Shown: one piece after another, positions 9,406 through 63,650 of the stretch
How the letters are laid out: each line of letters begins with the position of its first letter
How positions within the stretch are numbered: the stretch's first letter is position 1
NCBI GenBank assembly: GCA_016196065.1
Contig: JACPYL010000008.1
Coordinates: 434,001-498,000, forward strand
Direction of reading: 5' to 3'
Source of the DNA: Acidobacteriota bacterium
GTDB lineage: Bacteria; Acidobacteriota; Terriglobia; Terriglobales; Acidobacteriaceae
DNA length: 64,000 bases
Translations under genes and position numbers: made by a program
Notes under the pieces: generated by a model
Seen by the model: the letters and a program-made list of their open reading frames with translations, nothing else
The model's database searches: none
What the model was told of the DNA's origin: nothing

Positions 9406-9454
9406 CTGGTCTCTGGTCTCTGGTCGCTGCTGCTGCTTGCTCGCGGTTTGCTAC
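9406..9454. repeat. Degenerate heptad array A (CTGGTCT type), single arm
   Basis: Seven consecutive 7-nt units can be read: CTGGTCT, CTGGTCT, CTGGTCG, CTGCTGC, TGCTTGC, TCGCGGT, TTGCTAC. It lies between convergent genes and runs to the stop codon of the small membrane protein. No inverted partner is evident. See the finding on heptad arrays. Confidence 0.7.
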
Positions 9455-9621
9455 TTGCCCGTTCGCATCGCAATCCACAGTCTCCAAAAGAAAACCAGAC
9501 CGAGTGCTGCGAAGAATGAGCCCAGCACAACCCGCTGGTCGGATGCGCCGGACATGTAACCCAAGCCAAACAGCAGGAGATAGAAGGCAATGAAACTCCG
9601 AATCGTGAGCCAAATATCCAT
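9451..9621 (-). CDS. Small two-helix membrane protein
   Basis: 56 aa from ATG 9621 (MDIWLTIRSF...). Two hydrophobic helices are visible (SFIAFYLLLFGLGYMSG and VVLGSFFAALGLVFFWRLW), separated by a short polar turn (ASDQR), with a basic C-terminus. The frame is open further upstream but that part is charged and lies in the promoter region of the divergent acyltransferase. No strong SD. It resembles short uncharacterised acidobacterial membrane proteins; function unknown. Confidence 0.6.
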   Translation of the reverse strand: MDIWLTIRSFIAFYLLLFGLGYMSGASDQRVVLGSFFAALGLVFFWRLWIAMRTGK

Positions 9622-9718
9622 GGCTGGCACTTTACGCCGAAAGTAGGCCGGATTCCAGCGGCCCGGGTTGGATCTGTCCTTTGTAGAATCCTTGGCCTGC
9701 CTGCTAAACTCCCGCACA

Positions 9719-10618
9719 GTGCGCGAACGCCTCGAATACTGGCTCGTGTGGGTCTTCCTGAAGGTGATGGGGATTCTTCCCCGTCCGCTGGCCCGCGCGA
9801 AAGGTATCAGCCTCGGCTTGCTGGTCTACGTCCTGCATGGACGCCTGCGGCGCGTCGGGATGCAGAACTTGTCGCTGGCCTTTCCAGAAATGTCGCGAAA
9901 GCAGAGAGTTCGCATCCTGCGTGGGGAATACATCTCTTTGGGACGTCAACTCGCCGAGGTCTGCCTCTTCCCTCGCTATACGCGGGAGAATGTCACGCAG
10001 GTAGTTGTCTACGACGGCTTCGAGAATTTCGAGCGTGCCTTCGCGCGCGGCAAGGGCGTCCTGTTTCTGACCGGTCACCTGGGCGGCTGGGAGCTTTCCG
10101 CCTTCGCACACTCTTTGCAAGGGCATCCTCTGTCCGTCGTCATGCGCTCGCTGGACAATCCTCGCGTCGACCATCTGATTCAGAGTTATCGCACCATGCA
10201 CGGCAATCGCACCGTCGATAAAGACGATTTCGTGCGCGGCCTGCTGGCAGCCATGAAGAAGGGCGAGGTCGTGGGTATCCTGATGGACACGAACATGACT
10301 CCGCCGCAGGGCGTGTTCGTGGACTTCTTCGGGATCCCGGCATATACGGCGAGCGGGTTGTCGCGTATCGCCCTACGCACGGATGCAGCCGTGATCCCCA
10401 CGTTCACGATCTGGGATGCGAAGCTCGGGAAATATCGCCTGCGATTCGATCCGGCCGTGAAACTGATCCGCACGGACAACAACGAAAGCGACATCGTCGC
10501 CAACACAGCGCAGTTCACGAAAATTATTGAAAGCTATGTCCGGCGCTACCCTGAACAGTGGCTGTGGGTACACCGCCGATGGAAGACGCGGCCGGAGGGG
10601 GACAAGCCGCTGTACTAG
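9719..10618 (+). CDS. LpxL/HtrB-like lysophospholipid acyltransferase
   Basis: Inner-membrane acyltransferase of the late lipid A (lauroyl/myristoyl) family. The HX4E active site is TGHLGGWEL. Other family marks are the N-terminal helix, RVGMQNLSLAFPEMS, VVGILMDTNMTPPQGVFVDFFG and the C-terminal YPEQWLWVHRRWKTRP, which is near-diagnostic. About 299 aa from GTG 9719; an upstream in-frame TTG at 9668 would add 17 residues, and neither has a clear SD. It is followed 88 bp later by lpxD, which supports a lipid A role. Exact acyl donor and position are inferred. Confidence 0.9.
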   Translation: MRERLEYWLVWVFLKVMGILPRPLARAKGISLGLLVYVLHGRLRRVGMQNLSLAFPEMSRKQRVRILRGEYISLGRQLAEVCLFPRYTRENVTQVVVYDGFENFERAFARGKGVLFLTGHLGGWELSAFAHSLQGHPLSVVMRSLDNPRVDHLIQSYRTMHGNRTVDKDDFVRGLLAAMKKGEVVGILMDTNMTPPQGVFVDFFGIPAYTASGLSRIALRTDAAVIPTFTIWDAKLGKYRLRFDPAVKLIRTDNNESDIVANTAQFTKIIESYVRRYPEQWLWVHRRWKTRPEGDKPLY

Positions 10619-10706
10619 TTGTCGGTAAAAGCTATTCGCCCTCAGGTTTTTTGCGGCGCCGAGAATGATTTGCGAACGTAACGGTTGAACGCGACAATAG
10701 AGGTTC

Positions 10707-11702
10707 ATGAAACGCACTCTTCAATATCTTGCGGAGCGCCTTGGCGGCAGAGTAATTGGCAATGGGACGGTTGAAGTTGCTGCGGTAACGAGCCTCCAGT
10801 CCGCAACGCAGGAAAGCCTTGTCTTCGTCGACGAGGCCAAGCACCTTGATTCCGCACTCACCTCACACGCGGCCGCGGTCATCGCAGGAGAATTTGCCAC
10901 GTCGATCCCTTCCACGAAGCCACTACTGATCCATCCCCATCCACGCCTCGCATTTGCGCGCGCGTCCAAACTCCTGCGTAATGATGAGCAACGTGGCGGA
11001 GTGCACGCTTCGGCGATCGTCTCTGCTTCGGCTCGTCTCGGCAGAGGAGTCGCGATCGGGGCACGTGCCGTTATTGAGGAGAACGTTGTCGTAGGCGATG
11101 GAGCCGTCATTGGCGCCGGATGCGTGATTGGCGACGAAGTGAAGATTGGTACTGATTGCCGGATTGACCCGAACGTGACCGTCTATCCGGGCACGACGAT
11201 CGGTGACCGCGTCGTGATCCAGGCAGGCGCGGTGCTGGGCAGCGAGGGTTTCGGGTATGTTCGCGACGCTGCGACTGGGCACTACGAACAATTTCCGCAA
11301 GTCGGACGCCTCGTGATCGAGGACGACGTCGAGATCGGCGCCAATGCAACCATTGATCGCGGCGCACTCGACGAAACTCGCATTCGCCGCGGCACAAAGA
11401 TCGACAACCTGGTGCATGTGGGCCACAACGTCCAGATCGGCCATGATGTCGTGATCGCAGCGCAGACTGGGCTATCCGGGAGCGCGGTGGTCGAAGACAA
11501 TGTCATCATCGGCGGGCAGGTTGGGATTGCAGACCACGTGCGGATCGAAGAAGGCGCGATCCTCGGCGCGCAGAGCGGCGTTCCATCGAAGAAAGTGATT
11601 CGCGGCAAAGGCATCGTGTTCTGGGGAACTCCGGCGCGTCCGCTGCGAGAGTATCTAAAGGAACTGGCATTCTTGGCGCGAGCGGCGAAGCGAAAAGAAT
11701 AA
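10707..11702 (+). CDS. lpxD: UDP-3-O-acylglucosamine N-acyltransferase
   Basis: Third step of lipid A synthesis: transfer of a 3-hydroxyacyl chain to the 2-amino group of UDP-3-O-acylglucosamine. 331 aa. N-terminal uridine-binding domain (to about residue 100), then left-handed beta-helix hexapeptide repeats (GDGAVIGAGCVIGDEVKIG and many others). The catalytic His lies in IDNLVHVGHNVQIG. The GFGYV segment and GTPARPLREYLKELAFL C-terminus are typical of LpxD. GAGG four bases before ATG supports the start. Neighbouring genes (LpxL-like acyltransferase upstream) fit an envelope lipid locus. Confidence 0.96.
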   Translation: MKRTLQYLAERLGGRVIGNGTVEVAAVTSLQSATQESLVFVDEAKHLDSALTSHAAAVIAGEFATSIPSTKPLLIHPHPRLAFARASKLLRNDEQRGGVHASAIVSASARLGRGVAIGARAVIEENVVVGDGAVIGAGCVIGDEVKIGTDCRIDPNVTVYPGTTIGDRVVIQAGAVLGSEGFGYVRDAATGHYEQFPQVGRLVIEDDVEIGANATIDRGALDETRIRRGTKIDNLVHVGHNVQIGHDVVIAAQTGLSGSAVVEDNVIIGGQVGIADHVRIEEGAILGAQSGVPSKKVIRGKGIVFWGTPARPLREYLKELAFLARAAKRKE

Positions 11703-11714
11703 AGAAAACGCCCT

Positions 11715-11767
11715 GCTGCGAGCTTGCAGCGGGAGTTCGAAAGCCCCCAAGATCGAAGCTCGCAGCT
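11715..11767. repeat. Heptad array pair B (AGCTGCG type), inverted
   Basis: Left arm units TGCTGCG, AGCTTGC, AGCGGG (one base short), AGTTCGA; right arm reads on the opposite strand as AGCTGCG, AGCTTCG. GCTGCGAGCTT (11716-11726) pairs perfectly with AAGCTCGCAGC (11757-11767) across about 30 nt. It fills the gap between lpxD and the next gene and could fold in the mRNA just before its start codon at 11774. Confidence 0.65.
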
Positions 11768-11773
11768 AATGAT

Positions 11774-12433
11774 ATGCCCATCCTCGTCATCGGCGGCCAT
11801 TCCCGCAGCGTCGGCAAAACCAGCGTCGTCGCGGGTCTGATCTCTGCCCTGCCCGAGTTTCATTGGACTGCCTTCAAGATCACGCAATATGGACACGGCA
11901 TATGCTCGGCCAACGGCGCAGCCTGTGACTGCGCGACAGACGATCATGCCTGGGCGGTATCGGAAGAAAGGAATCGCGATGGCGAGTCCGACAGTTCGCG
12001 ATTCCTGGTTGCGGGTGCCGAGCGTGCGTGGTGGGTGCGTACGGAACAAGGAAGGCTTGCGGAAGCCATGCCGCGGGTCCGGCAGATTCTTGCCGGGACA
12101 CAAAATGCGATCATCGAGTCGAACAGCATTCTGCGTTTTCTAAAACCTGATCTCTACCTGACGGTACTCGACCCATCGATTGCTGATTTCAAGAATTCCG
12201 CGCAAACGTTTCTCGATCGTGCGGATGCAGTCCTGCTGCACCCTGCCGAGGACTCCAGTTCCCCGGCGTGGGAGCGCGTCTCACTCAAGCCGGTGGCCAA
12301 CCGTCCAATCTTCGCGATTCGTCCGCCGCAGTATGTCACGCCAGAAGTCGTTCAGTACGTCCGCGAGCGTCTTTCGACAGTGCTGCATCGGACGGAAGAT
12401 CCCTCGCTCGCTCCGGATGACAGGATCAAATGA
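11774..12433 (+). CDS. BioD-like P-loop NTPase, function unknown
   Basis: 219 aa. The N-terminus ILVIGGHSRSVGKTS is a Walker A variant with five residues between Gly and GKT, as in dethiobiotin synthetase (GTDTEVGKT), placing it in the SIMIBI class of P-loop proteins. A later IESNSILRFLKPDLYLTVLD resembles the Walker B/Asp strand of that fold, and RADAVLLHP may correspond to the base-recognition strand. An unusual Cys pair occurs at CDCATDD. It follows lpxD by 71 bp on the same strand, so a link to lipid A or envelope metabolism is possible but unproven. Not assigned as bioD because the substrate residues are not recognisable. Confidence 0.7.
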   Translation: MPILVIGGHSRSVGKTSVVAGLISALPEFHWTAFKITQYGHGICSANGAACDCATDDHAWAVSEERNRDGESDSSRFLVAGAERAWWVRTEQGRLAEAMPRVRQILAGTQNAIIESNSILRFLKPDLYLTVLDPSIADFKNSAQTFLDRADAVLLHPAEDSSSPAWERVSLKPVANRPIFAIRPPQYVTPEVVQYVRERLSTVLHRTEDPSLAPDDRIK

Positions 12434-12439
12434 AAAGCG

Positions 12440-13831
12440 CTATTCCGCATACATCGCAATCACTCGCTCGATCGCCCGCCGGCATACACCACAGAACGCA
12501 TTGTGCCGCGTGAACATAATGCAATTCATCTGCGGACGGTAGTATCCCTTCGCCTGATAGTTCGCGCCTTCGAAAGCCCCTACGCTACTGGCATTTTTTT
12601 GCGTCGCAAACATGGCATCTTCCTTCTCGCGCTCCTTGCGAAAAAGTTCTTCCATCTCCGCTTCCGGCTTTCCAGCAGCTCGCAGCTCCCTGCGCTGCTT
12701 CTGTATATCGGCTTCGTAACGCTCGAATTCTTCCTTCGGCCAGGGAGTGGGAAGCGGCGTGCCCTTCTCGACGAGATCTCTCCACTTCAAGTTTGCCGGA
12801 TCCAGCAGGGCCGTCACGTTCGGCTCCCAGGGTTCTTTCTTCTCTGCCCCAGAAAGATACGCCACGTCGGATGTGTAATACTCGTCCGCCAAAGCAGCAA
12901 AGTGGTGGCCGAATTCGTGGACTCCCACATATCCGGCCCATCCGTTGTCGATCGCGACGGTTGCGTACTGATTGAAGATTCCTCCTCCGCCATAGGTCTT
13001 TCCGTTGACGAGGATCTCGATGAACTCGTAGGGAGCAAACGAAGCTGCGTCACGTAACGTGCGGTTCTCAGCGGTCAGAATGTAGCGCTCGCTGTCGAAG
13101 GTGTCGTAGGTAGCGCCCAGTGGCGATCGACGATAGATCCCGCTTGAAGGCCGCGCAATTCCGCTTTCCGCCGCCGGGGGACACAGTCCCCACACGTTGA
13201 AATCTTTCTGGTGCTCGCGAAATGGCGACGTCGAAAAGAGCGTTTCCAGGAATCGGCGAGCATCTTTTTCGAACTTACCGCGTTCAGCTTCCGTGTAGCC
13301 ATCGCCCATTACAACCAGATCGACTTTCGTGGACGGGTCTCCCATCCTCTGCAACGGAATCAACGCGCCCACGGAAGGCGGACGCGACCGGTCGACAAAC
13401 TTGTCATTCGGATCCACGGCTGTTTTCCAGACCTCTTGAAAGCCGCCGTCCGTGCGGGCTTTCACGGACACTTCGACGGGAACCGACGGGCTTGGAAAGC
13501 GCAGTGATTCGGAAAAAGTGCGGTTCGCGTGCAAGGCTTCGTCGGTATCGCGCCACTCTGTGAATACCGAACTGAACCCGCGCGAGTAAACGAGTTTCCC
13601 AGTCTGCTTTTCGCGGACCTCAAAAATGTAGTTGCCGAGAGCGCTGTCGTCGATTGCCTTGGTAGGATTCCCGGGCCACTCCAGCGGTTCAAGAACGGTC
13701 CTATCCAGGCTGAACCATTCCTGCTTGGAGTTCCCCGCGTGGTAGTAGTCCACGCGCATGGTGCGGGGGGCGGCAAAGCTGACGACGGAAAATGCGAGAG
13801 CAGACAAAACAACCGCGAGGGTTCGTCTCAT
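12440..13831 (-). CDS. Secreted M64-family (IgA peptidase-like) metallopeptidase
   Basis: 463 aa with a signal peptide (cleavage near VSFAAP, residue 21). N-terminal beta domain of about 130 aa, then the M64 catalytic domain: KVDLVVMGDGYTEAE near the start, TYGGGGIFN, and the zinc site VHEFGHHFAALADEYY (HExxH plus downstream Asp). The C-terminus has paired Cys (NCIMFTRHNAFCGVCRRAI). A charged helical insert (about residues 355-405) is rich in Glu, Lys and Arg. Known M64 members include bacterial proteases cleaving IgA, but environmental members have unknown substrates. Ends six bases from the convergent P-loop gene with no visible terminator. Confidence 0.88.
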   Translation of the reverse strand: MRRTLAVVLSALAFSVVSFAAPRTMRVDYYHAGNSKQEWFSLDRTVLEPLEWPGNPTKAIDDSALGNYIFEVREKQTGKLVYSRGFSSVFTEWRDTDEALHANRTFSESLRFPSPSVPVEVSVKARTDGGFQEVWKTAVDPNDKFVDRSRPPSVGALIPLQRMGDPSTKVDLVVMGDGYTEAERGKFEKDARRFLETLFSTSPFREHQKDFNVWGLCPPAAESGIARPSSGIYRRSPLGATYDTFDSERYILTAENRTLRDAASFAPYEFIEILVNGKTYGGGGIFNQYATVAIDNGWAGYVGVHEFGHHFAALADEYYTSDVAYLSGAEKKEPWEPNVTALLDPANLKWRDLVEKGTPLPTPWPKEEFERYEADIQKQRRELRAAGKPEAEMEELFRKEREKEDAMFATQKNASSVGAFEGANYQAKGYYRPQMNCIMFTRHNAFCGVCRRAIERVIAMYAE

Positions 13832-13854
13832 GCGAGAAATTGTACTCGAGTGGC

Positions 13855-14577
13855 TTACTCTCCCGGCTTGATCTCCGTCGCCTTGTCATCCCGAAACGTA
13901 ATTGTGAAAGGCTTGCCCCCGTTAGCGTATTTCAGCGTTCTGGAGCCGTAAGTTCCCGAACCTTCGGGGATGCCGAGCCCCAACGCGAGGCTCGCTTGCA
14001 GTTCACTCATTCCTTGGAGCGCCTCATGGCCGTCGATCGCTTTCCACATTTCGGCGGGCCACCGTTTGTAGAGCTCGTGCGGGTCTTCGATGAAGAACAT
14101 TTCATCGGAATAAATTCTGAAGTCGCCACCTTGTTCGGCCCCGATGGGGACGGCAAAAGGCATTCCATCCAACTCGAACCTCGCTATCACCTGTTTGGCT
14201 TCGGGTGCTTTCGGAGAGACATCGGTGACGACGTCCTGAATTTGCAGCTTCTGAAGCGGCAGCAGCGTCCCGGATTCACGGCTGAAATCTACTTTGCGAC
14301 GCGCGACATTGTAGGGATAGTAAGTGTATCCGTAACCGATCTTCACCCAGATCGGCTGCTTCGTCAGTTCGCGCGCCGACTTCAAATCGTAGGGATGCAG
14401 TTTCTTCGGCGTGATGTAGTAGTCGGCCTTGAGCGCTTTTTCCTGCTTTGGCTTGGCATCCTCTTTGCGTTCCTCATAGCGGTCGTAAACGATGTACGCG
14501 GCACGCGCTCCCGCCAGAACGATCGCGACCATCAGAAATATCTGTATTTTCTTTCGAGACTCAGGATCCATGGCCAT
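13855..14577 (-). CDS. Membrane-anchored hypothetical protein
   Basis: 240 aa, not recognised. One N-terminal transmembrane helix (IQIFLMVAIVLAGARAAYIVY), then a basic/acidic linker (DRYEERKEDAKPKQEKA), then a mostly beta domain predicted outside the cytoplasm (ADYYITPKKLHPYDLKSAREL, WVKIGYGYTYYPY). Start at ATG 14577 or the second ATG two codons in; no good SD. Lies 23 bp downstream of the M64 peptidase start in the same direction, so they may be co-transcribed. It is divergent from the DUF59 gene. Confidence 0.6.
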   Translation of the reverse strand: MAMDPESRKKIQIFLMVAIVLAGARAAYIVYDRYEERKEDAKPKQEKALKADYYITPKKLHPYDLKSARELTKQPIWVKIGYGYTYYPYNVARRKVDFSRESGTLLPLQKLQIQDVVTDVSPKAPEAKQVIARFELDGMPFAVPIGAEQGGDFRIYSDEMFFIEDPHELYKRWPAEMWKAIDGHEALQGMSELQASLALGLGIPEGSGTYGSRTLKYANGGKPFTITFRDDKATEIKPGE

Positions 14578-14600
14578 AGGAATGATCTAAACTTATCGTT

Positions 14601-14918
14601 ATGCCGTTAACCCAGGAAGACGTTCTTAGTGCCCTCAGGCAGTGTTATGACCCCGAAATCCCCGTCAACATTGTCGATTTGGGCCTGATCTATGACGTGC
14701 GCTTCGACGCACTACCGGAAGACCAGCAGGACGTCACCGTAGAGATGACACTCACTGCTCAAGGTTGCCCGGAGCACGTCAACATCAGTGCGCAGGTGAA
14801 GTCGCGAGTGGAACAACTTCCGGGTGTGCGCAATGCCAATGTCAACGTGGTCTGGGAGCCACCCTGGACCCCAGAACGCCTCAGCCCCGACGCGCGCAAG
14901 CAACTGGGGATTGAGTAG
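14601..14918 (+). CDS. DUF59/MIP18-family Fe-S cluster assembly factor
   Basis: 105 aa; the MIP18 (DUF59) domain fills the protein: VLSALRQCYDPEIPVNIVDLGLIYDV at the N-terminus and the conserved Cys in LTAQGCPEHVNISAQVK. Homologues (SufT, PaaD-like, CIA2) help Fe-S cluster maturation. The C-terminus (VWEPPWTPERLSPDARKQLG) is typical of the single-domain bacterial form. No suf or paa genes are nearby, so a general maturation role is the best guess. Confidence 0.9.
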   Translation: MPLTQEDVLSALRQCYDPEIPVNIVDLGLIYDVRFDALPEDQQDVTVEMTLTAQGCPEHVNISAQVKSRVEQLPGVRNANVNVVWEPPWTPERLSPDARKQLGIE

Positions 14919-14921
14919 GGC

Positions 14922-15015
14922 GTCGTCAGTCGTTGGTGGTTCGTCCTTCGCGATGCGTCGCTCGTCCTTCGCTAAATGCAAAAGTCTCAGCTACGAAGTG
15001 CGAACGACGAACGAC
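14922..15015. repeat. Heptad array pair C (GTCGTTC type), inverted
   Basis: Left arm, seven contiguous units: GTCGTCA, GTCGTTG, GTGGTTC, GTCCTTC, GCGATGC, GTCGCTC, GTCCTTC (14922-14970). Right arm: GAAGTGC, GAACGAC, GAACGAC (14995-15015), which is the reverse complement of the left-arm unit. It lies between convergent genes, three bases after one stop and five before the other. The clearest example of the 7-nt period in the window. Confidence 0.75.
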
Positions 15016-15020
15016 GGCCC

Positions 15021-15302
15021 TCAGAACTCTTCCAACTCCTCCAGCAAGCCGCGGCCCCGTTGCTCGACGAGTGCTCCGATCTTGCTACCGATCTTCATCG
15101 CCATATCGAAGAAACGCGTTCCCTGCTGGACGTAGCTGGGAATCTCTTCGCGAATCTGGGTGAATTTTTCGGGATATTCGGACGCCAGGACGGCCAGCCC
15201 GACTCCTGCCGCCAGAACTCCGGCTGGGCGTTTCCCTTTGACGATCAAGATTGTCGCCGCTCCCACCGATCCAGCGATCACTGCCTTCTTCCAGTTCTCC
15301 AT
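15021..15302 (-). CDS. Small hypothetical protein with hydrophobic N-terminal region
   Basis: 93 aa from ATG 15302, supported by GGAG six bases upstream (TTGGAGTCGAC). The first half is hydrophobic (AVIAGSVGAATILIVKG and GVLAAGVGLAVLAS), possibly two short helices. The second half is amphipathic and helical (YPEKFTQIREEIPSYVQQG, RFFDMAMKIGSKIGALVEQRG) and ends in LLEELEEF. Not recognised; could be a small membrane-associated protein. Divergent from the P1 peptidase gene. Confidence 0.65.
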   Translation of the reverse strand: MENWKKAVIAGSVGAATILIVKGKRPAGVLAAGVGLAVLASEYPEKFTQIREEIPSYVQQGTRFFDMAMKIGSKIGALVEQRGRGLLEELEEF

Positions 15303-15402
15303 GTCGACTCCAAGGTTCAAGAAAACTTTCTGGCTCTGGATTGTAAACCAGTCCTCGTGCTTCGATGCTTTATACTGCGCAGTGCGCTGCTCCTGTCTCT
15401 CT

Positions 15403-16569
15403 ATGAAAATGAAAATGTCCATGACTTGTTCCGTCCGAACTCTGTCTGTGCTCCTCCTCGTGAGTGTTTCCGCATTCGGCCAAGGCAAGCCACGCGCACG
15501 CGATCTCGGCGTTCCCTTCGATGGAGATCCAGGACCGCTCAACGCAATCACCGACGTCAGAGGCGTCGAAGTCGGCCATACGACATTGATCTCTGGCAGC
15601 GGCAAGCTCAAGGTGGGCGAAGGTCCCGTCCGCACCGGCGTCACGGCTGTACTACCGCGGGGGAAAGATTCCCTGGATGCGGTGTTTGGCGCGTGGTTCA
15701 CGCTCAACGGCAATGGTGAGATGACCGGCACAACCTGGCTCGACGACTCGGGCTTTCTCGAAGGCCCGGTCATGATCACGAACACGCACAGCGTCGGCGT
15801 CGTGCGGGATTCGGTCATTGCGTGGCGTATCAAAAAGGCTCCGCCCGATTCCGAAGGCTATAGCTGGTCCCTGCCCGTGGTGGCCGAAACGGCCGACGAT
15901 GACCTCAACGACATGAACGGCTTTCATGTGAAGCCAGAACATGTTTTCCACGCGCTCAACAGCGCTCACGGTGGACCGGTCGAAGAAGGCAACGTGGGCG
16001 GCGGGACGGGCATGATCTGCAATGAGTTCAAGGGAGGGATTGGTACCGCTTCTCGCGTCCTGCCTGCCAAACTGGGCGGTTACACGGTCGGGGTGCTGGT
16101 CCAGTGCAATTACGGACGGCGAAGCCAGCTTCGTATCGCAGGCGTACCCGTGGGCAAGGAAATTCCCGATCACCTGGTGCGCGACGAAGACATAGGCTCC
16201 ATCATCATCGTGGTGGCCACCGATGCACCGCTGATTCCGACCCAGCTCAAGCGCGTGGTGCGCCGGGCATCTCTTGGACTGGGACGTGTCGGCAGTTTTT
16301 CAGGCGACGGCTCGGGAGACATTTTTATCGCCTTCTCGACCGCGAACCCAGGCGCTGCGAACCCGAAGGAAATTCGTGATTTAAAGATGCTGCCCAACCA
16401 GCATTTGAATCCTATTTTTCTCGCCACCGTCCAGGCAACCGAAGAGGCCGTCGTCAATGCGATGGTCGCGGCGGAAACCATGACAGGCATCAACGACACG
16501 ACCGTGATTGCATTACCGCACGACAAGTTGCGAGAGGTTTTGAAGAAATACAACCGGCTCGTGAAGTGA
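15403..16569 (+). CDS. P1-family peptidase (DmpA-like aminopeptidase), secreted
   Basis: 388 aa from ATG 15403, giving a signal peptide that ends VSAFGQ. The longer upstream frame overlaps the divergent gene and is rejected. DmpA/BapA-fold N-terminal-nucleophile hydrolase: RDLGVPFDGDPGPLNAITDV, then the conserved region around GGGTGMICNEFKGGIGTASR that includes the self-cleavage site of this family, and NAMVAAETMTGINDTTVIAL near the C-terminus. Family members release N-terminal D- or L-amino acids or beta-amino acids from peptides. The precursor should self-process into two chains. Ten bases from the convergent phosphoesterase. Confidence 0.92.
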   Translation: MKMKMSMTCSVRTLSVLLLVSVSAFGQGKPRARDLGVPFDGDPGPLNAITDVRGVEVGHTTLISGSGKLKVGEGPVRTGVTAVLPRGKDSLDAVFGAWFTLNGNGEMTGTTWLDDSGFLEGPVMITNTHSVGVVRDSVIAWRIKKAPPDSEGYSWSLPVVAETADDDLNDMNGFHVKPEHVFHALNSAHGGPVEEGNVGGGTGMICNEFKGGIGTASRVLPAKLGGYTVGVLVQCNYGRRSQLRIAGVPVGKEIPDHLVRDEDIGSIIIVVATDAPLIPTQLKRVVRRASLGLGRVGSFSGDGSGDIFIAFSTANPGAANPKEIRDLKMLPNQHLNPIFLATVQATEEAVVNAMVAAETMTGINDTTVIALPHDKLREVLKKYNRLVK

Positions 16570-16579
16570 CGACTGCGGA

Positions 16580-17578: not shown

Positions 17579-17672
17579 GGACTTCCCCCAGGAATAATCC
17601 GACGCAGCTTTCAAAGGCTAAGATGCGGATTTGGCGGACTTCGCCACGAGAATGAGGGCACTCTCGGACAAA

Positions 17673-24077: not shown

Positions 24078-24164
24078 GTGGTTTGTGGCTAGTGCTTAGT
24101 GATTAGTAAACGACTGTTTCCTTCCATCCGTTTCGCTAACCACTAATCACCAACCACTATCCAC
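24078..24164. repeat. Heptad array pair D (GTGGTTA type), inverted
   Basis: Left arm GTGGTTT, GTGGCTA, GTGCTTA, GTGATTA (24078-24105). Right arm TAACCAC, TAATCAC, CAACCAC, TATCCAC (24137-24164), the reverse complement of the same unit. The two arms are 31 nt apart and fill the gap between the aldehyde dehydrogenase gene and the downstream GABA-type aminotransferase gene. Confidence 0.72.
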
Positions 24165-27130: not shown

Positions 27131-27235
27131 TGGAGTCATGAATCATCGAGGCATTGAATCACTGAAAACGACAGGACTGGGGCAATGATTCAGTGAATCA
27201 ATACCTCAATGACTCAATTGCCCCGATGACTCAAT
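27131..27235. repeat. Imperfect inverted array E (TGAATCA type)
   Basis: Short words of 7-8 nt (GAGTCAT, TGAATCA, TTGAATCA on one side; TGATTCA, TGAGTCA on the other, read in reverse) make a nested fold. ATTGAATCACTGAA (27153-27166) pairs perfectly with TTCAGTGAATCAAT (27189-27202); GGGGCAAT (27179-27186) pairs with ATTGCCCC (27217-27224); GAGTCAT (27133-27139) pairs with ATGACTC (27226-27232). Two of these pairs interlock, so alternative folds are possible. It occupies the whole gap between two genes of the cluster. Confidence 0.65.
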
Positions 27236-43603: not shown

Positions 43604-43680
43604 GCGCCCGTAGCTCAGCTGGATAGAGCGCTTCCCTCCGAAGGAAGAGGCCGGGAGTTCGAATCTCTCCGGGCGCACCA
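43604..43680 (+). tRNA. tRNA-Arg (anticodon CCG)
   Basis: 77 nt with genomically encoded CCA. Acceptor stem GCGCCCG/CGGGCGC; D arm GCTC-AGCTGGATA-GAGC; anticodon stem CTTCC/GGAAG with loop CTCCGAA, so the anticodon is CCG and reads CGG; 5-nt variable loop; T arm GGGAG-TTCGAAT-CTCTC; discriminator A. All stems pair fully. No integrase gene or repeated copy of its 3' end was seen nearby. Confidence 0.97.
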
Positions 43681-43687
43681 TAAAACC

Positions 43688-43715
43688 CAGCTGTCAGCTC
43701 TCGGCTTTCAGCTCA
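43688..43715. repeat. Heptad array F (CAGCTCT type), single arm
   Basis: CAGCTGT, CAGCTCT, CGGCTTT, CAGCTCA in contiguous 7-nt register, eight bases after the tRNA. No inverted partner found before the next gene. Confidence 0.6.
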
Positions 43716-56534: not shown

Positions 56535-56739
56535 AGCAACACTCTCCTGGGAGCAGAACGTCGAAGCCAATTCTGCGGTGCTAGGGTCTGAGCTTCAACC
56601 GCTTCAATAATGGATAGAACAGTTTACTAGATGCGGGGGCAGTGGCGGCGAGGTGTATGGGAAATATGGGAACTATGCCTTAAGCGATAGGTTTCAAAAA
56701 GAAGGGGTGGGCAGCGCTGACCCGTAAGATCCCATGCTC

Positions 56740-57651: not shown

Positions 57652-57661
57652 GCGGGGACAA

Positions 57662-58396
57662 TCATTTGGATGCAGGCTGCCCTCTGGTTGCGCCTGCGGG
57701 ACGAGCGATTTCTTCGGGAAAGGGCTCACCGTCTGCCCACACAGCTCCGTCCTCGAAATATTCTTTCTTCCAGATGGGAACCGTCTTCTTCAAGGTGTCG
57801 ATGATCCAGCGGCAAGCCTCAAATGCAGGCCCACGGTGTGCGGATGCTACCACGATCAGCACGCTCGTCTCACCGATTTCCAGGTGACCCAGACGATGCA
57901 CGAGGGTCACTGCCCTTACGGCAAAGCGAGCCTTGGCATCCTCGCAGAGCGCCTCCATCTGCTTCAGCGCCATGGCTTCGTAGGACTCATAGTCGAGGTA
58001 GAGGGTACGACGCCCACGCGTGTTGTCGCGGACCACACCTTCGAAGACCACCGCCGCGCCATCCTGCGGGAGCTTGGTGCGATCGAGTTCCGCCTGCGTG
58101 GATATTGGTTCCCGCACAATGCGAACGCACGGTAGCACGCTGGCCGCGACCGAGCCTCCACTCACCGGCGGAAGCAATCCAACTTCGTCGCCGCTCCGTA
58201 GAACTTTTTCTGGACCGGAATACTCCTGATTTACAGACAGCGCCAGCGATGGAAGCAGCGACTCCAAACGGGGCGCCTGGCTTACATAGTGGGAGAGGAC
58301 GGCTTGAAGACGGGCTCCTTCCGGGAGTTCCAGCGCATCGCTCGACCGTCCGAGCAGGTCTTTCAACATCCCGAAAAAAAGTACGCGAATCTGCAT
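57662..58396 (-). CDS. moaX: Molybdopterin synthase MoaD-MoaE fusion (MoaX-like)
   Basis: 244 aa. Residues 1-81 are a MoaD sulfur carrier (MQIRVLFFGMLKDLLGRSS...) ending PPVSGG, the Gly-Gly that must be a free thiocarboxylate. A MoaE catalytic subunit follows from about residue 93: AAVVFEGVVRDNTRGR, LVHRLGHLEIGETSVLIVVASAHR, FEACRWIIDTLKKTVPIWKKE with the active Lys residues. Together they convert precursor Z (cPMP) to molybdopterin. In mycobacterial MoaX the fusion is cleaved after Gly-Gly to become active; Gly80-Gly81-Ser82 here fits the same maturation. No other moa genes in the window. Confidence 0.93.
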   Translation of the reverse strand: MQIRVLFFGMLKDLLGRSSDALELPEGARLQAVLSHYVSQAPRLESLLPSLALSVNQEYSGPEKVLRSGDEVGLLPPVSGGSVAASVLPCVRIVREPISTQAELDRTKLPQDGAAVVFEGVVRDNTRGRRTLYLDYESYEAMALKQMEALCEDAKARFAVRAVTLVHRLGHLEIGETSVLIVVASAHRGPAFEACRWIIDTLKKTVPIWKKEYFEDGAVWADGEPFPEEIARPAGATRGQPASK

Positions 58397-58722
58397 CGCA
58401 AATCACGAGGTCCCGCGGAGACGCGCCAATCCGCATCCATACGGCGTATGAAATTTTGGACGGACAGCTCCCCCGCCTAGCGTCCAGTGTAGCGCGACCA
58501 AGCGCGGGAACGCCTCGAATAACCCCGAAAATTAGGGCTGGATGAGGTTTTTGTATCCCAGTGGTCTATTACCTCCGTAATCGTGCATAAGGTCACTTTC
58601 CGTCATAGGCTTATGTCCGAAGGTCCTAACGCCCTGAGGAGGGAGTTATCTCCACCGCAGCTCAAACCGATGCTATCCGCAATGCGTCTGCGCGGGCGTT
58701 TATCCACAGCCTGAACATTCTT

Positions 58723-61353
58723 GTGAAGTACACGCGCCTCTATGGCGTGAAGCATAAGCGGACCGAAGGCCAGTTCCAAACCACCTGGAAAGAACTGCAG
58801 GAAGGCCTGCCCAAGACCGGAGAAACCGGATTTCTGCTGGGTGTAGCGGACAATCGATTGTTGCTGGACGGCACGCCTCTCGAAACCGGACAGGCAGAAC
58901 GAAGCTTCGCGCAACTGCTCACTGCGGCCGGCCTGGCGAGTATCCATTTTTCCAGCAAAGTTACGCTCGATGACTTTACCCGCCTGGTCACAGCCTTTGC
59001 GATGGGCGGATCGAAGGCGCAGGACTTCGCCAAGCAACTCAAAGACACGCTCGGCGACAACAAGAATTCTTCCATCAAAATCAATGAAGTGAAATTTATC
59101 GCAGCTGATCCGACGACCGGAGAAATTTCCGTCGCAGCCCAGCTCGCTGCACAATCGCTCGGACCAGAATTCAAACAGTGGCTGAACGATCCGCAAAAAA
59201 TGCTGCAGTTGATCGCCGCGGCCCAGGGAGCGAGTTCCGGCGGCTCGGGCGAGCCCGGCGGAGCGCCACTGGGTACGGTCCCCAATGTTCCGGTCGCGCA
59301 TGGCGGCGGAGCGGGCACCGGCGGCGGCGGTGGTGCGTGGACCGGCGGAACGGTTCCTCTTCAAGAAGAGGAAGTGATTCAAGCCATCCGCATGCTCACT
59401 CACTTCGGACAAGTAGCGCAGGATCCGAACGCGGGCCCCGAACAGTTCACCGCGGAGCTGAACAAAGTTCCCGAAAGCACCAAGCTGAATCTGGCTGGGT
59501 TACTTGAAAGTTTGTCGAAGCAGGTCACAACGGTTGCCGAAGAAACCGACACGCCACTGTTGATGAAGGCGGCCGAGCACATGGCCATCCGCTTCGCACT
59601 CGATCGCTATTCGAAGGGTGAAGTAAAGGTCAACGCCGTTCACCAGATGATGGAGCACATGAGCCGTCAGATGGACACGTTGCGGCAGATCTTGCGCGTG
59701 CAGGAAGACAAGATGTCGAAGGCGGGCATCCTGGTCGACTCGCATGCCGACATTCTCGACCGTATGTTCTGGGCGGAAGTCCCGGAAGCTGGCAAGAAGA
59801 GCGTACTGCTCTCGGGCGAAGCGGCATGTGTGCCTCCGCGCAACATCCGGCAGTTTGTGGAAATGCTGCTGGAGCGCGACGACAAAGAGATTGCAGCCAA
59901 GATCCTGACTAACTACTGCAGTTGCCTGGACGCCAAGGACCTCGAGCCGCGGCGCAAGACCGCCATTGGTCTCGCGCAGATTGCCGACCTCTACGCAAGC
60001 GCTCCGGAAGAAGTGATGCCGAACGCAATTTCCATGATCGGCGAAAAGCTGGCCAAGGAAACCGACAGTGAAGTGCAAAGCCTTTTGAGCGCGGCATTCA
60101 CCCGTTTCGGACAGGAAGCCTGCACTCGCAAGAAATACAAAGCGGTCGCGGAAGTTTGCCTGTCGCTGGTCGATATCGGCAAGGAACGTCCGCTGCTGGT
60201 GCAGGATCTGCGTTCCCGTGTTGGCATTGAAAACCGCCTCCCGGAAATGCTCGAAGAAGCCATCATGGCGCCTTCGGTTTCGGAAGAGCTGATCAACGTT
60301 CTGCAGCAGATTCCGAAGAGTTCCGTGGAACATCTCTCTGACCGATTCTTCCGCTCGCAGAAACGAGTAGAGTGCGACCGGATCGTGGAACTGGTCGGAG
60401 AACTGGGCCAGCCGGCGGTCGACGATCTGCGCGAGGTGCTGCGCACCGGACAACCGCGACAAGCTGCATCCTGTGTAGGCCTGCTGAGCCGTCTGAATGT
60501 CTCAACGTTGCTCGAACTGCTGCCGACACGCATGTCGGAATTCAACCGTTTCTATCAGGACGTAATCGTGCGCCAGATCGCGTACGGCGCCGCTTCCGAT
60601 CGCGGCCGCACGCTCCTGGAGCTTTTGGAATTGCTCGATCCGCTCATTCTGCCCGAGGCCATCGACGAAATCGGGATGAGCCTGGATCGCACCGCGAGTT
60701 CGAGTCTGATTGCGATGGCGAGCGCGGGCGAAGCTGCTTCCCGGCCACCGTTTGTGCAGCTCAAAGCGATCGAGTCCCTGGGACGATTGCGAGATGCAGA
60801 AGCGGTTCCGGTTCTGCGCAGCATCGTGGAAGAGAAGAAGATCTGGGGCCGCACGCAGCATCGCGAGCTACGCGTCGCTGCGGCGCAGGCACTGTCGAAG
60901 ATCGACCCGCGCTATGGCGCCCAGGTACTGGCAGACAGTGGCCTGGATGCCGCAGAACTGGCCATCAATCCGTTGGATCCGGCTCCTGCTTGCCCATGGG
61001 TGCGGCAGCGGCGCTATGAACGCGTCATTCTGCCACGCACATTCTCGGCGACGCTGAGCAGTTCCTGGGGAAAGTCCAATATCGTCATGCGCGAAATGAG
61101 CATGGGCGGCGGTATGGGAACGCGTAGCGACAATCTCCGCGTCGGTTCCGAAGCGAACGTCGAGATCTCCACGGGCGTAAAAAAGATTCGCGGCCAGGTC
61201 CTCCTGCGTCGCGCGCGTGTCAACGAAATCGGCTTCGAGTTCGTCAGCATGGATCTGGACAGCCGTTACCGGCTACGCCGCATCCTGGTCGAAGCGTCCG
61301 AGAAAGCGCCCGAGAATCGTTCGTCCACGTGGGACGGCGAACGCAAGACCTAG
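58723..61353 (+). CDS. HEAT-repeat/PilZ protein (start may be AUC 58648)
   Basis: 876 aa if started at GTG 58723, but this lacks an SD. In the same frame, ATC at 58648 has GGAGG exactly five bases before it and begins with Ser-Thr-Ala-Ala (a usual second residue), adding 25 residues. Residues 1-150 are helical; a Gly-rich linker follows (GGGAGTGGGGGAWTGG); residues about 225-770 form helical HEAT-like repeats (RKTAIGLAQIADLYASAPEEV, FVQLKAIESLGRLRDAEAVPVL). The last about 100 residues are PilZ-like (RYERVILPRTFSATL, EMSMGGG, NEIGFEFVSMDLDSRYRLRRIL). Acts presumably in c-di-GMP-dependent control. Single-gene unit with a strong terminator. Confidence 0.82.
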   Translation: MKYTRLYGVKHKRTEGQFQTTWKELQEGLPKTGETGFLLGVADNRLLLDGTPLETGQAERSFAQLLTAAGLASIHFSSKVTLDDFTRLVTAFAMGGSKAQDFAKQLKDTLGDNKNSSIKINEVKFIAADPTTGEISVAAQLAAQSLGPEFKQWLNDPQKMLQLIAAAQGASSGGSGEPGGAPLGTVPNVPVAHGGGAGTGGGGGAWTGGTVPLQEEEVIQAIRMLTHFGQVAQDPNAGPEQFTAELNKVPESTKLNLAGLLESLSKQVTTVAEETDTPLLMKAAEHMAIRFALDRYSKGEVKVNAVHQMMEHMSRQMDTLRQILRVQEDKMSKAGILVDSHADILDRMFWAEVPEAGKKSVLLSGEAACVPPRNIRQFVEMLLERDDKEIAAKILTNYCSCLDAKDLEPRRKTAIGLAQIADLYASAPEEVMPNAISMIGEKLAKETDSEVQSLLSAAFTRFGQEACTRKKYKAVAEVCLSLVDIGKERPLLVQDLRSRVGIENRLPEMLEEAIMAPSVSEELINVLQQIPKSSVEHLSDRFFRSQKRVECDRIVELVGELGQPAVDDLREVLRTGQPRQAASCVGLLSRLNVSTLLELLPTRMSEFNRFYQDVIVRQIAYGAASDRGRTLLELLELLDPLILPEAIDEIGMSLDRTASSSLIAMASAGEAASRPPFVQLKAIESLGRLRDAEAVPVLRSIVEEKKIWGRTQHRELRVAAAQALSKIDPRYGAQVLADSGLDAAELAINPLDPAPACPWVRQRRYERVILPRTFSATLSSSWGKSNIVMREMSMGGGMGTRSDNLRVGSEANVEISTGVKKIRGQVLLRRARVNEIGFEFVSMDLDSRYRLRRILVEASEKAPENRSSTWDGERKT

Positions 61354-61391
61354 CCAAGGCTAGACCTGCAAACGTAAGTCTCTCGAAACAA

Positions 61392-61420
61392 AAAAGCCTC
61401 CGCTTCGAGCGGAGGCTTTT
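61392..61420. terminator. Bidirectional Rho-independent terminator
   Basis: GCCTCCGCT (61396-61404) and AGCGGAGGC (61408-61416), loop TCG, flanked by a run of A (61390-61395) and TTTT (61417-61420). It serves the plus-strand HEAT/PilZ gene and the minus-strand ATP synthase operon, which face each other. Confidence 0.88.
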
Positions 61421-61450
61421 CACTGCATCGAATTCCCAACACGTAAATCT

Positions 61451-61762
61451 TTAGACAACCTTGACGAAAATAATCACGAGCGTGAACAGCACCAGCGACT
61501 CGATGAAGGCCAAGCCGAGAATCAGCGCCAGCTGAATGAAAGAACGTGCTGCAGGGTTGCGAGCCATCGCTTCGCAAGCCGCTGCACCCACTTTGCCCTG
61601 GCCTTGCGCAGCCAGACCAGCCGCGATTGCAATCGCGAAGCCTGCCGTAATCGCAACCCAGTTCGTACCGCCGGCCGCAGCGCCACCGGTCTGCGCGAAC
61701 GCAGGCACGGCAAGGATCGAGAACATCATCATCACGAACAGCACCATCAACATCTTCTTCAT
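61451..61762 (-). CDS. atpE: ATP synthase F0 subunit c
   Basis: 103 aa from ATG 61762 (AGGAG seven bases upstream; the 23 codons before are rejected). Ring-forming subunit that carries ions. An N-terminal extension of about 24 residues is a signal peptide (VLFVMMMFSILAVPAFAQ). Then come helix 1 (ITAGFAIAIAAGLAAQGQGK), the polar loop ACEAMARNPAA and helix 2 with the ion-binding Glu (GLAFIESLVLFTLVIIF). Of the residues that make a Na+ site in Ilyobacter, the helix-1 Gln, Glu and Ser are present but the following Thr and Tyr are not, so H+ use is more likely. Last gene of the atp operon shown here. Confidence 0.96.
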   Translation of the reverse strand: MKKMLMVLFVMMMFSILAVPAFAQTGGAAAGGTNWVAITAGFAIAIAAGLAAQGQGKVGAAACEAMARNPAARSFIQLALILGLAFIESLVLFTLVIIFVKVV

Positions 61763-61839
61763 TGTTTTTCTCCTAGGAAATAGCCGCCAGTTGGTGGTTG
61801 ACACCGCGCCTTGGGAGGCCGGAGCCCTCACGCTGGAAG

Positions 61840-61927
61840 CAGGTGACAGGTCTCAGGTGTTAGGTGTCAGGAAAACCGAATGAAGCGACGCGCTTCCTGA
61901 GACCTAAGACCTGACACCTGACACCTG
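61840..61927. repeat. Heptad array pair G (AGGTGTC type), inverted, between atpB and atpE
   Basis: Left arm AGGTGAC, AGGTCTC, AGGTGTT, AGGTGTC; right arm the same unit reversed. The 34-nt arms (61840-61873, 61894-61927) match at 30 positions, 20 nt apart, so the transcript can form a long hairpin in the leader of atpE. Confidence 0.78.
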
Positions 61928-61931
61928 TTCT

Positions 61932-62690
61932 TTAGTGTTCGTGCGCCGTTGCTTCGCCCAGATAAACGCAGGCGAGCAGCACAAAAATGTATGTCTGAAT
62001 CAGCGACACGCCGATATGCAATCCCTCGAACAGCACCGGGATACCAATCGGCAAGAGCGAGAAAAATACCAATGTCACCATTTCGCCGGCGAACATATTA
62101 GCGAACAAACGAATCGTCAATGACATGATCCGGGCGAGGTGACTGAACACTTCGATCGGGAACATCAAGACCGGCAAGAACAGCCGGACCACGATCGGCA
62201 GGTCTTTGTCCTGCGGCCCGATAAAGTGTTTCAAATATCCAATCGCGCCGTTGGTTCGGACGCCGTACAAGTTGTAATAAACCCAAGTCATCAACGCGCA
62301 ACCGAGCGGCACCACGTTCACCGCCGTTGGCGATTCCAGTCCCGGGACGAGTCCAATCAAATTGCAGGAGAGGATGAACATTCCCAGCGTAATCAGATAT
62401 CCGACGAACGGGTCCGCATGATGGCCGATCGTCTCGTGCGCCAGGTTGTTTACAAACCCGTAAATACCTTCCATGGTGTGCTGCAGGCTGCCCGGCTTCT
62501 CCACTGACAACCGCATCCGCACCAGGACAAAAAATGCCGTCAGCAGCAGGACGACCAGGATCTCCATCGCCACCGCATTGGAAATCGGCGCCGCAGGGTT
62601 CATCACGGGAACGCCAATCGCGTGCAGCAAAGCGAACACAGGTCCGCCGAAGATCCGATTCAGGAATTCAGTAAATACCAGTTGTTCCAT
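61932..62690 (-). CDS. atpB: ATP synthase F0 subunit a
   Basis: 252 aa, about five or six membrane helices. The essential Arg facing the c-ring is in SLTIRLFANMFAGE; the preceding VFSHLARIM and the C-terminal LLACVYLGEATAHEH are family hallmarks. N-terminus shows the periplasmic PVFALLHAIGV segment. The gene lies between atpI and atpE on the minus strand, in the order a-c usual for the start of atp operons. It is separated from each neighbour by an inverted heptad array. Confidence 0.97.
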   Translation of the reverse strand: MEQLVFTEFLNRIFGGPVFALLHAIGVPVMNPAAPISNAVAMEILVVLLLTAFFVLVRMRLSVEKPGSLQHTMEGIYGFVNNLAHETIGHHADPFVGYLITLGMFILSCNLIGLVPGLESPTAVNVVPLGCALMTWVYYNLYGVRTNGAIGYLKHFIGPQDKDLPIVVRLFLPVLMFPIEVFSHLARIMSLTIRLFANMFAGEMVTLVFFSLLPIGIPVLFEGLHIGVSLIQTYIFVLLACVYLGEATAHEH

Positions 62691-62705
62691 ACGATTAGGT
62701 AATGC

Positions 62706-62797
62706 AGCTTCGAGCTACAGGCTTGAACCTGATTCTTCCAGATTTCAAGACCGTCAGCGCCCAATTTTTCGCGGCTCGCAGCTCGTAGCTCGCAGCT
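62706..62797. repeat. Heptad array pair H (AGCTTCG type), inverted, between atpI and atpB
   Basis: Left arm AGCTTCG, AGCTACA, GGCTTGA (62706-62726); right arm CGCGGCT, CGCAGCT, CGTAGCT, CGCAGCT (62770-62797), the same unit reversed. The two arms span the gap before the atpB start. Confidence 0.72.
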
Positions 62798-62800
62798 TCT

Positions 62801-63247
62801 TTACTTCTTACGAAATGCAACGACCGCTTCGACTCCTGCCTCGGCCATCATGGCCGCCACCGGCAGGCAAAGCCCCCACAGGAACCCTCGGAAGGCCAAA
62901 ACGGAACCCTTTAAGATAGCATACGCAGCCACTCCAACCAACCCGTAACGGACCAGGAAACGGCCGACAATCGCCCATCCCCGCTCCTTGCTCTGCTGGT
63001 TCACTACGCGGTCGCCAAGGGCCTCGACGCCGCTGATCAAGGTTCGGAAATTGACATAGGAAACGGCCGATCCAGCGGCCACACCGAGTGCGCCAACCCA
63101 ACCGTAATACCAGTAGACGGGTCCCAGGAGAAGCACGCCGACCACCAGGATTGTCCGCAGCATTCGGGGGATGGCGCGTTCGTGGAAAGTATCGAAAGGC
63201 GTGCTTTCGACTGGGGCGCTTGCTTCGGAGTTGGAGAGGTTACTCAT
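62801..63247 (-). CDS. atpI: ATP synthase protein I-like membrane protein
   Basis: 148 aa. Four hydrophobic helices after a polar N-terminus (MLRTILVVGVLLLGPVYWYYG, VGALGVAAGSAVSYVNFRTL, FLVRYGLVGVAAYAIL, FLWGLCLPVAAMMAEAGVEAVV). This matches the AtpI family (c-ring assembly and Mg2+ transport have been proposed). Its start overlaps the atpZ stop by 8 nt, and atpB follows, which is the usual position. Assignment rests mostly on that context and the helix pattern. Confidence 0.85.
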   Translation of the reverse strand: MSNLSNSEASAPVESTPFDTFHERAIPRMLRTILVVGVLLLGPVYWYYGWVGALGVAAGSAVSYVNFRTLISGVEALGDRVVNQQSKERGWAIVGRFLVRYGLVGVAAYAILKGSVLAFRGFLWGLCLPVAAMMAEAGVEAVVAFRKK

Positions 63248-63473
63248 CCCGGGAGGCCGACATCGCCATACGAATCATCTGATAGAAACCCAGCACTGCG
63301 CCCGCCAGGAGGCCGGCCAGATAAAGCCACTTGGTGTGAAGCCAGTAGTCGAGAAGTTTGCCAAAAAAGAACCCTACCAGGATTGCAGCCGGGATGATGA
63401 ATCCAATTTCGGAGTAGCGTGCGAGCGCCACCAGCGGATCTTTCTTCCCGGGAGGCGTGGAGGGCGCGGCCAT
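63240..63473 (-). CDS. atpZ: AtpZ-family small membrane protein
   Basis: 77 aa. Two helices (IGFIIPAAILVGFFFGKLLDYWL and WLYLAGLLAGAVLGFYQMIRM), the standard AtpZ/AtpI hairpin with the GKLLDYW motif. N-terminus (AAPSTPPGKKDPLVALARYSE) is polar. First gene of the ATP synthase operon; overlaps atpI. In other bacteria AtpZ and AtpI form a complex that assists assembly of the c-ring. Confidence 0.9.
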   Translation of the reverse strand: MAAPSTPPGKKDPLVALARYSEIGFIIPAAILVGFFFGKLLDYWLHTKWLYLAGLLAGAVLGFYQMIRMAMSASRDE

Positions 63474-63489
63474 GCGGTGATTCTAAACT

Positions 63490-63650
63490 AGCCGCGGGCT
63501 GCGGGCGCCGAGCTACGTGCAACCAAATTTGCCGAGACCCTGTTCCGCCGGAGAAGCGGGCAAAATCATCAACCCAACCATCACTGAGTCGGAGGTGCTG
63601 AGGGGTGGGGGTGCGCGAAGCGCGAAGGTTCTAGCTCGTGGCTCGAAGCT
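63490..63650. repeat. Heptad array pair I (AGCTACG type), inverted, between nuoN and atpZ
   Basis: Left arm AGCCGCG, GGCTGCG, GGCGCCG, AGCTACG (63490-63517); right arm TCTAGCT, CGTGGCT, CGAAGCT (63630-63650). About 110 nt of unrelated sequence lies between the arms. The right arm ends three bases before the nuoN stop codon. Confidence 0.65.

What the first reader, a model, noticed from the sequence alone, without database searches (positions are those of the whole stretch)
9406..63650. A class of intergenic heptad arrays: fixed 7-nt period, changing unit, usually paired as inverted arms
Nine spacers (9406-9454, 11715-11767, 14922-15015, 24078-24164, 27131-27235, 43688-43715, 61840-61927, 62706-62797, 63490-63650) contain 3-7 contiguous degenerate 7-nt units (7-8 in the fifth). 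Units differ between sites: CTGGTCT, AGCTGCG, GTCGTTC, GTGGTTA, TGAATCA, CAGCTCT, AGGTGTC, AGCTTCG, AGCTACG. Seven sites have two arms in opposite orientation around a 10-110-nt centre, so the RNA or DNA can fold back, with compensating variation between units. What is conserved is the period and geometry, not the sequence. This is not a normal tandem repeat, REP, MITE or CRISPR. The nearest thing I know of is the heptanucleotide STRR repeats of filamentous cyanobacteria, which keep their unit. Sites lie only between genes, in tandem and convergent gaps.
Basis: seen in the sequence. Interest (0 to 1): 0.85.

Follow-up and report, generated by a model that had tools for sequence, protein, structure and literature searches.

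The report
Seven-base-repeat hairpins after bacterial genes
Between the genes of these soil Acidobacteria sit hairpins built from short runs of a seven-base word that starts right after a gene's stop codon; the word differs between sites and between species while the hairpin stays, a richer form of the seven-base repeats already known in a few other bacteria.

Summary
In 740 kb of the same genome taken blindly, lag-7 self-similarity gives 37 intergenic segments, against 0.0 in dinucleotide shuffles and 3 in 556 kb of genes; lags that are not multiples of 7 give 0-2. Eight of the nine listed sites are heptads; 27131-27235 is an 8-nt hairpin. Seven of nine form arms.

(1) Units are not arbitrary: read outward from a stop codon they share a frame Y-Y-R-G-n-n-v, which held 48:5 in other genera and families. 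(2) Position 4 is nearly fixed and position 7 nearly free, so plain slippage is not enough. (3) At the orthologous atpB-atpE gap the unit differs between species, but both arms change together.

Hairpins start within about 8 nt of the stop, avoid divergent gaps, and crowd one relative's ribosomal-protein operon. They have no T-tract and no G-U excess over A-C, so RNA-level selection is not shown.

Single-unit relatives are published (Xanthomonas GGGAATC inverted pairs, Beggiatoaceae TAACTGA, Nostoc trnL P6b). Verdict: a new variant of a known kind, probably working like REP/BIME 3'-end hairpins; function unproven.

The parts
61894..61929 (-). 5' (stop-proximal) heptad arm after atpB, unit CAGGTNT, begins 2 nt after the stop codon
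   Evidence: fold z -7.8
61838..61873 (-). 3' heptad arm of the atpB-atpE hairpin; unrelated 20-nt loop 61874-61893
62780..62803 (-). 5' arm after atpI, unit AGCTNCG, runs from the atpI stop codon; the array continues to 62769
   Evidence: fold z -2.6
62700..62723 (-). 3' arm of the atpI-atpB hairpin, 10 nt before atpB
24132..24164 (-). 5' arm after the aldehyde dehydrogenase gene, unit AGTGGTT/AGTGATT
   Evidence: fold z -5.5
24078..24110 (-). 3' arm of the same hairpin
14936..14962 (+). 5' arm, unit GTCGTTC (array starts near 14922), after the iron-sulfur assembly (FeS_assembly_P) gene
   Evidence: lag-7 p=0.002, stem p<0.004
14989..15015 (+). 3' arm, unit ACGAACG
11715..11725 (+). short 5' arm, AGCTNCG type, after the LpxD-like gene
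   Evidence: stem p=0.003
11756..11766 (+). short 3' arm of the same hairpin
27189..27216 (-). 5' arm of an OCTAD (8-nt) hairpin, not a heptad
   Evidence: best lag 8; fold z -7.9
27139..27166 (-). 3' arm of the octad hairpin
63609..63643 (-). degenerate 5' arm, AGCTACG type
   Evidence: stem p=0.02
63490..63524 (-). degenerate 3' arm
9406..9429 (+). single heptad array CTGGTCT x3.4, no partner arm
   Evidence: fold z +0.75
43688..43715 (+). single heptad array AGCTSTC, 10 nt after a tRNA gene (43604-43677)

Best explanation
These are gene-end stem-loops made of heptad arrays. From a stop codon outward the sense strand reads (YYRGnnv)3-6, then a loop of 3-110 nt that is unrelated between sites, then the inverse array. 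Shown: period, frame, orientation, stop-codon anchoring, avoidance of divergent gaps, pairing, and joint change of both arms between species. Inferred: they are transcribed and act in mRNA as end-of-gene hairpins, working like REP/BIME elements (protecting or separating the messages of neighbouring genes in an operon), and not as intrinsic terminators. Each is renewed by gain, loss and copying of heptads within and between sites, which lets the unit change while the hairpin stays.
For: Period and intergenic restriction. 77 tandem-gap hairpins better than all shuffles, 5' arm starting within -3..+7 nt of the stop codon in 63. Stop-adjacent arrays read YYRG outward 60:5, and 48:5 in genera and families not used to derive the frame; array-free gaps show no such base skew. 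Divergent gaps avoided. Both arms change unit together at the orthologous atpB-atpE site: own-own pairing 19.6, same unit in another species 16.8, different unit 6.4; permutation p<2e-4. Same trend at the aldehyde dehydrogenase site (11.2 vs 8.2, p=0.0012). Crowding in a relative's ribosomal-protein/secY/rpoA operon: 15 of 25 gaps vs 14 of 165 elsewhere, p=2e-8, each hairpin pairing with itself and not with its neighbours (17.8 vs 7.0). Position-specific conservation.
Against: No excess of G-U over A-C mismatches on the sense strand (143:124, p=0.27; held-out 53:64), so selection on single RNA pairs is not visible. No T-tract (1.92 vs 1.85). About a quarter of array-bearing gaps have no significant partner arm, and several orthologous gaps have arms of different families. 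Many related genomes lack the arrays. No transcript data.
Confidence: 0.45

Rival explanations
1. Passive DNA-level repeats: heptads arise by polymerase slippage (7 nt thought to match the polymerase active-site footprint), inverted arms arise by strand switching across a quasi-palindrome, and both survive only where they harm neither coding, promoter nor RBS.
For: Heptamer SSR excess in many bacteria and the slippage idea are reviewed in PMC4692102. G-U equals A-C. Single-arm arrays exist. No conserved loop.
Against: Slippage copies all seven positions alike, but position 4 is the same in the next unit 93% of the time and position 7 only 40%; 86 of 118 hairpins show this unevenness without assuming the motif. 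The fixed orientation relative to stop codons in held-out lineages is not predicted.
Confidence: 0.28
2. A dispersed, REP-like mobile family: about 35-nt arms are copied to new gene ends (for instance by RAYT-type Y1 transposases) as inverted pairs.
For: Arms at different loci share long exact runs more than permuted arms do (>=21 nt: 14 vs 4.4). Irregular unit order such as CAGTTCC-CGGTTCT-CAGTTCT recurs at several loci. Six Y1_Tnp genes in the genome. Location resembles REPs (PMC3733652).
Against: No flanking target duplication (1.76 vs 1.90); loops unrelated; arms are not palindromic by themselves on average and lack GTAG/CGTC tags; many unit families in one genome.
Confidence: 0.15
3. Binding arrays for a sequence-reading protein: each arm is a phased array of YYRG sites for an RNA- or DNA-binding protein, and complementarity is a by-product of both arms using one local unit.
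For: YYRG frame, nearly free position 7, fixed orientation; single arms occur; published proposal of a translational regulator for TAACTGA repeats (PMC4679880).
Against: Unit interior changes freely between sites; arms of one hairpin switch together; the obvious NAG-repeat reader, TRAP (PF02081), is absent from 41 related genomes.
Confidence: 0.1

Closest known systems
GGGAATC heptamer repeats of Xanthomonas (Rehm et al. 2015, PMC4692102)
   Same: Heptad SSRs, intergenic, 70-75 inverted pairs per genome, near stop codons on one strand and near start codons on the other, under-represented between divergent genes, site kept between species.
   Different: One G-rich unit proposed to form quadruplexes; here many units per genome, mostly not G-rich, a different frame (YYRG), and the unit itself changes at orthologous sites.
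TAACTGA direct repeats of Beggiatoaceae (MacGregor 2015, PMC4679880)
   Same: Intergenic heptads, also inside ribosomal-protein operons; reverse complement TCAGTTA fits YYRGnnv (score 4.7 against a random 95th percentile of 3.5), so it equals a start-proximal arm here.
   Different: A single unit, direct repeats with almost no inverted pairs, placed just upstream of start codons.
Nostoc trnL intron P6b stem-loop with Class I/II heptads (PMC4476775)
   Same: A stem built of complementary heptad arrays in which the unit class switches between lineages while the structure stays.
   Different: One locus inside a group I intron, two unit classes.
Cyanobacterial STRR heptanucleotides (known to me from the literature; heptanucleotides of Calothrix are cited in PMC4692102)
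   Same: Intergenic tandem heptads; a Trichormus plasmid gives 10 lag-7 segments vs 0 expected in the same scan.
   Different: A few fixed units; in that plasmid sample only one clear inverted pair and no consistent YYRG frame.
REP/BIME elements (PMC3733652)
   Same: 20-40-nt repeats, often in opposite pairs, downstream of genes in tandem and convergent gaps.
   Different: REP units are themselves palindromic with GTAG or CGTC tags; these arms are not.

Membership tests
Intergenic heptameric SSR / STRR-like repeats | Head-to-tail 7-nt units over-represented in intergenic DNA | tested here: met
   37 vs 0.0 expected in the blind set
Intergenic heptameric SSR / STRR-like repeats | One or a few constant unit sequences per genome | tested here: not met
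   39 distinct circular units among 77 hairpins of the genome, its genus and near relatives; at least five unit families in the own genome alone
Xanthomonas-type inverted heptad pairs | Two heptad arrays in opposite orientation near gene ends, rare between divergent genes | tested here: met
Xanthomonas-type inverted heptad pairs | G-tract unit GGGAATC able to form a quadruplex | tested here: not met
   units listed
REP/BIME | Each 20-40-bp unit is itself an imperfect palindrome | tested here: not met
   internal stem 3.84 vs 3.72 shuffled on average; 45 of 154 arms at or above the 95th percentile
REP/BIME | GTAG or CGTC tag at one end | tested here: not met
   3 of 77 arms
REP/BIME | RAYT (Y1) transposase in the genome | tested here: inconclusive
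   six PF01797 matches, RAYT subtype and neighbourhood not examined
MITE | Terminal inverted repeats with target-site duplication | tested here: not met
   no excess of flanking direct repeats
Intrinsic terminator | Stem-loop followed by a T-tract | tested here: not met
   T in the next 8 nt 1.92 vs 1.85 expected
Structured RNA under pair-level selection | G-U tolerated more than A-C on the transcribed strand | tested here: not met
   143:124, 53:64
Structured RNA under pair-level selection | Transcribed in vivo | not testable with these tools
   no RNA-seq held

The most novel reading that the evidence does not exclude
A gene-end 'heptad code': a dedicated, unit-agnostic machinery makes or reads arrays with period 7 and frame YYRGnnv at stop codons, so that only the period, the frame, the orientation and self-complementarity matter while the unit is free to change (for instance a repeat-adding polymerase with a six-base template plus one loose position, or a phased RNA-binding protein).
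Probability: 0.13. Interest if true: 0.85.

Novelty: new variant of a known kind. Interest (0 to 1): 0.55.

Why it matters
Heptamer repeats have been noted as over-represented in bacteria since 2007 (as cited in PMC4692102), without an accepted reason for the number seven. These genomes carry many unit families at once. At one orthologous gap the unit is replaced in both arms while the hairpin stays, which separates 'period and pairing' from 'sequence' and makes the origin of the seven-base step and its role at gene ends testable. If the hairpins act in mRNA, they would be a fast-evolving regulatory layer in essential operons (ATP synthase, ribosomal proteins) of a major soil phylum.

Tried and rejected
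Intrinsic terminator: rejected, no T-tract. MITE: no target duplication, loops unrelated. Classical REP: arms not palindromic, no tags. TRAP as reader of NAG repeats: no PF02081 match in 41 genomes. Neighbouring hairpins in one operon avoiding each other's unit: no more different than in random order (p=0.44). Rfam: no family at gathering threshold except a tRNA; the weak microRNA-precursor matches to the 61838 hairpin are far below their gathering scores and are chance. Stop codons in all frames as a function: considered from the unit list and dropped, because the CGAG and CCAG families contain none. Phase of the frame relative to the stop codon: broad, no clear birth phase. Literature on heptads in Acidobacteria: no paper held.
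Full report
WHERE IT IS. The window is G000:C8:434001-498000 of a 5.53-Mb genome. Named relatives found with the atpB protein are Acidobacteriota MAGs (Acidobacteriaceae/Terriglobales/Terriglobia in their titles). Genes were called with a simple hexamer-based caller of my own; starts and small genes are approximate.

THE OBSERVATION. For each intergenic gap I scored local self-match at lags 3-30. In 740 kb not chosen for repeat hits (454 gaps, 96,984 intergenic bp), lag 7 gives 37 segments, with 0.0 expected from dinucleotide shuffles and 3 in 555,525 bp of genes. Lags 14, 21 and 28 follow (28, 13 and 5); all other lags give 0-2. Same-genus loci: 69 vs 0.2 in 37 kb. In all own sequence 55 of 790 gaps carry an array. 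Of the nine listed sites eight are heptads; 27131-27235 is an octad hairpin. Octads are real but rarer: lag 8 gives 11 vs 0.3 in a relative's 400 kb, and two hairpins in that relative's ribosomal operon are of the type ATTGAGCG (L223:6198-6346 and 12363-12497).

ANATOMY. In tandem gaps, 77 hairpins (own genome, its genus and near relatives) beat every shuffle. Median arm length is 31 nt, about four to five heptads; median loop is 17 nt, range 3-111. The 5' arm begins within -3..+7 nt of the upstream stop codon in 63 of 77, while the distance of the 3' arm to the next gene is broad. Arrays occur in 46 of 529 tandem gaps and 6 of 107 convergent gaps but only 3 of 154 divergent gaps (tandem vs divergent p=0.002). 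Loops of different sites are unrelated and no target-site duplication is seen.

THE UNIT. Among 39 distinct circular units taken from sense-strand 5' arms, the best common register is Y-Y-R-G-n-n-v (G 96%), with 4.61 bits of information against 3.72 (maximum 3.96) when strands are randomised and 2.99 when letters are shuffled. Arrays within 15 nt of a stop codon read this frame outward in 60 of 65 cases in the training set and in 48 of 53 cases in other genera and families (p=7e-10); array-free gaps show no such base skew. A few loci of near relatives (L051, L053, L061) contributed units to the frame and are also in that second set; the bulk of it (L219-L278) did not. Within arrays position 4 is repeated in the next unit 93% of the time, position 5 86%, position 7 only 40%, and 86 of 118 hairpins show this unevenness at p<0.05 without assuming the motif. 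Neutral slippage treats all seven positions alike, so some position-specific constraint exists. A phylum-wide search for YCAGNTN-type runs found them in 33 of 149 Acidobacteriota genomes; some genomes carry more matches to the reversed control pattern, so that count is only a rough guide.

EVOLUTION. In the atpB-atpE gap nearly all genus members have a hairpin that starts just after the atpB stop, with units CAGGTNT, CAGTACC or CAGGAGT (and CAGTTTC in a neighbour lineage), followed by the same conserved atpE leader. Pairing of a species' 5' arm with its own 3' arm scores 18.3, with other species' arms 10.7 (permutation p<2e-4). For the two main unit families the scores are own 19.6, same unit in another species 16.8, different unit 6.4. 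Both arms therefore change together. At the aldehyde dehydrogenase site the effect is weaker (11.2 vs 8.2, p=0.0012), some species have arms of different families, and two have a 16-nt gap without any hairpin. Within one hairpin the exact order of unit variants adds only a little pairing (21.3 vs 19.5, p=6e-5). Arms at different loci of one genome share longer exact runs than permuted arms do (>=21 nt: 14 vs 4.4), which points to some copying between sites.

RNA OR DNA? For RNA: stop-codon anchoring, fixed orientation, avoidance of divergent gaps, presence in ATP synthase gaps, and the crowding in a relative's ribosomal-protein/secY/rpoA operon (15 of 25 gaps vs 14 of 165 elsewhere, p=2e-8), where each hairpin pairs with itself and not with its neighbours (17.8 vs 7.0). 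Against: G-U and A-C mismatches are equally frequent on the sense strand (143:124; held-out 53:64). There is no T-tract, so these are not intrinsic terminators. I therefore rate an RNA role as the most likely single explanation, at 0.45.

KNOWN RELATIVES. Heptamer SSR excess in bacteria and a polymerase-footprint slippage idea are reported in PMC4692102. The same paper describes inverted GGGAATC pairs near gene ends in Xanthomonas with a strand rule of the same form. TAACTGA arrays occur in Beggiatoaceae, some cyanobacteria and Bacteroidetes, partly in ribosomal-protein operons (PMC4679880). Heptad-built stems whose unit class switches are known for the Nostoc trnL intron (PMC4476775). So the kind is known. 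The many-unit form with a shared frame and joint switching of both arms was in none of the papers I found, but the library lacks most subscription journals.

LIMITS. Approximate gene calls; part of the own-genome sample was picked for AGCTGCG hits (the blind set excludes it); some relatives are incomplete MAGs; related sequences are not independent, so small p-values from pooled orthologues are optimistic; no expression data.

Noticed in passing
window 61763-61832 (-), and L029-L066: A conserved leader just upstream of atpE (CAGCGTGAGGGCGnCGGCTC..GAGnACGGCGTCAACCACCCACTGGCGGC..AAGGAG) in nearly all Terriglobia loci aligned, with a weakly covarying stem and no Rfam match: a candidate undescribed RNA element.
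   Followed up: partly
window 27131-27235; L223:6198-6346, 12363-12497: A minority class of hairpins with an 8-nt period (units like ATTGAGTC / ATTGAGCG), otherwise of the same geometry.
   Followed up: partly
L036, L040, L046 and L050 (atpI-atpB gaps); L164:12860-13260; L187:3479-3595; L114, L144, L149: Other dispersed palindromic repeats (TCATCCTGAGCG-type and GAGACGCGGCAAGCCGCGTCTC) occupy the same kind of gap, often in species without heptads there.
   Followed up: no
L056, downstream of atpB: A different, longer tandem array (units near 25 nt, AACCGTGGAAGAGCAAACAG-like) replaces the atpE leader region.
   Followed up: no
G000 C8:266627, C8:337755, C10:548768, C12:141620, C12:681950, C10:1515883: Six Y1-type transposase (PF01797) matches in the own genome; whether any is a RAYT next to heptads was not examined.
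   Followed up: no
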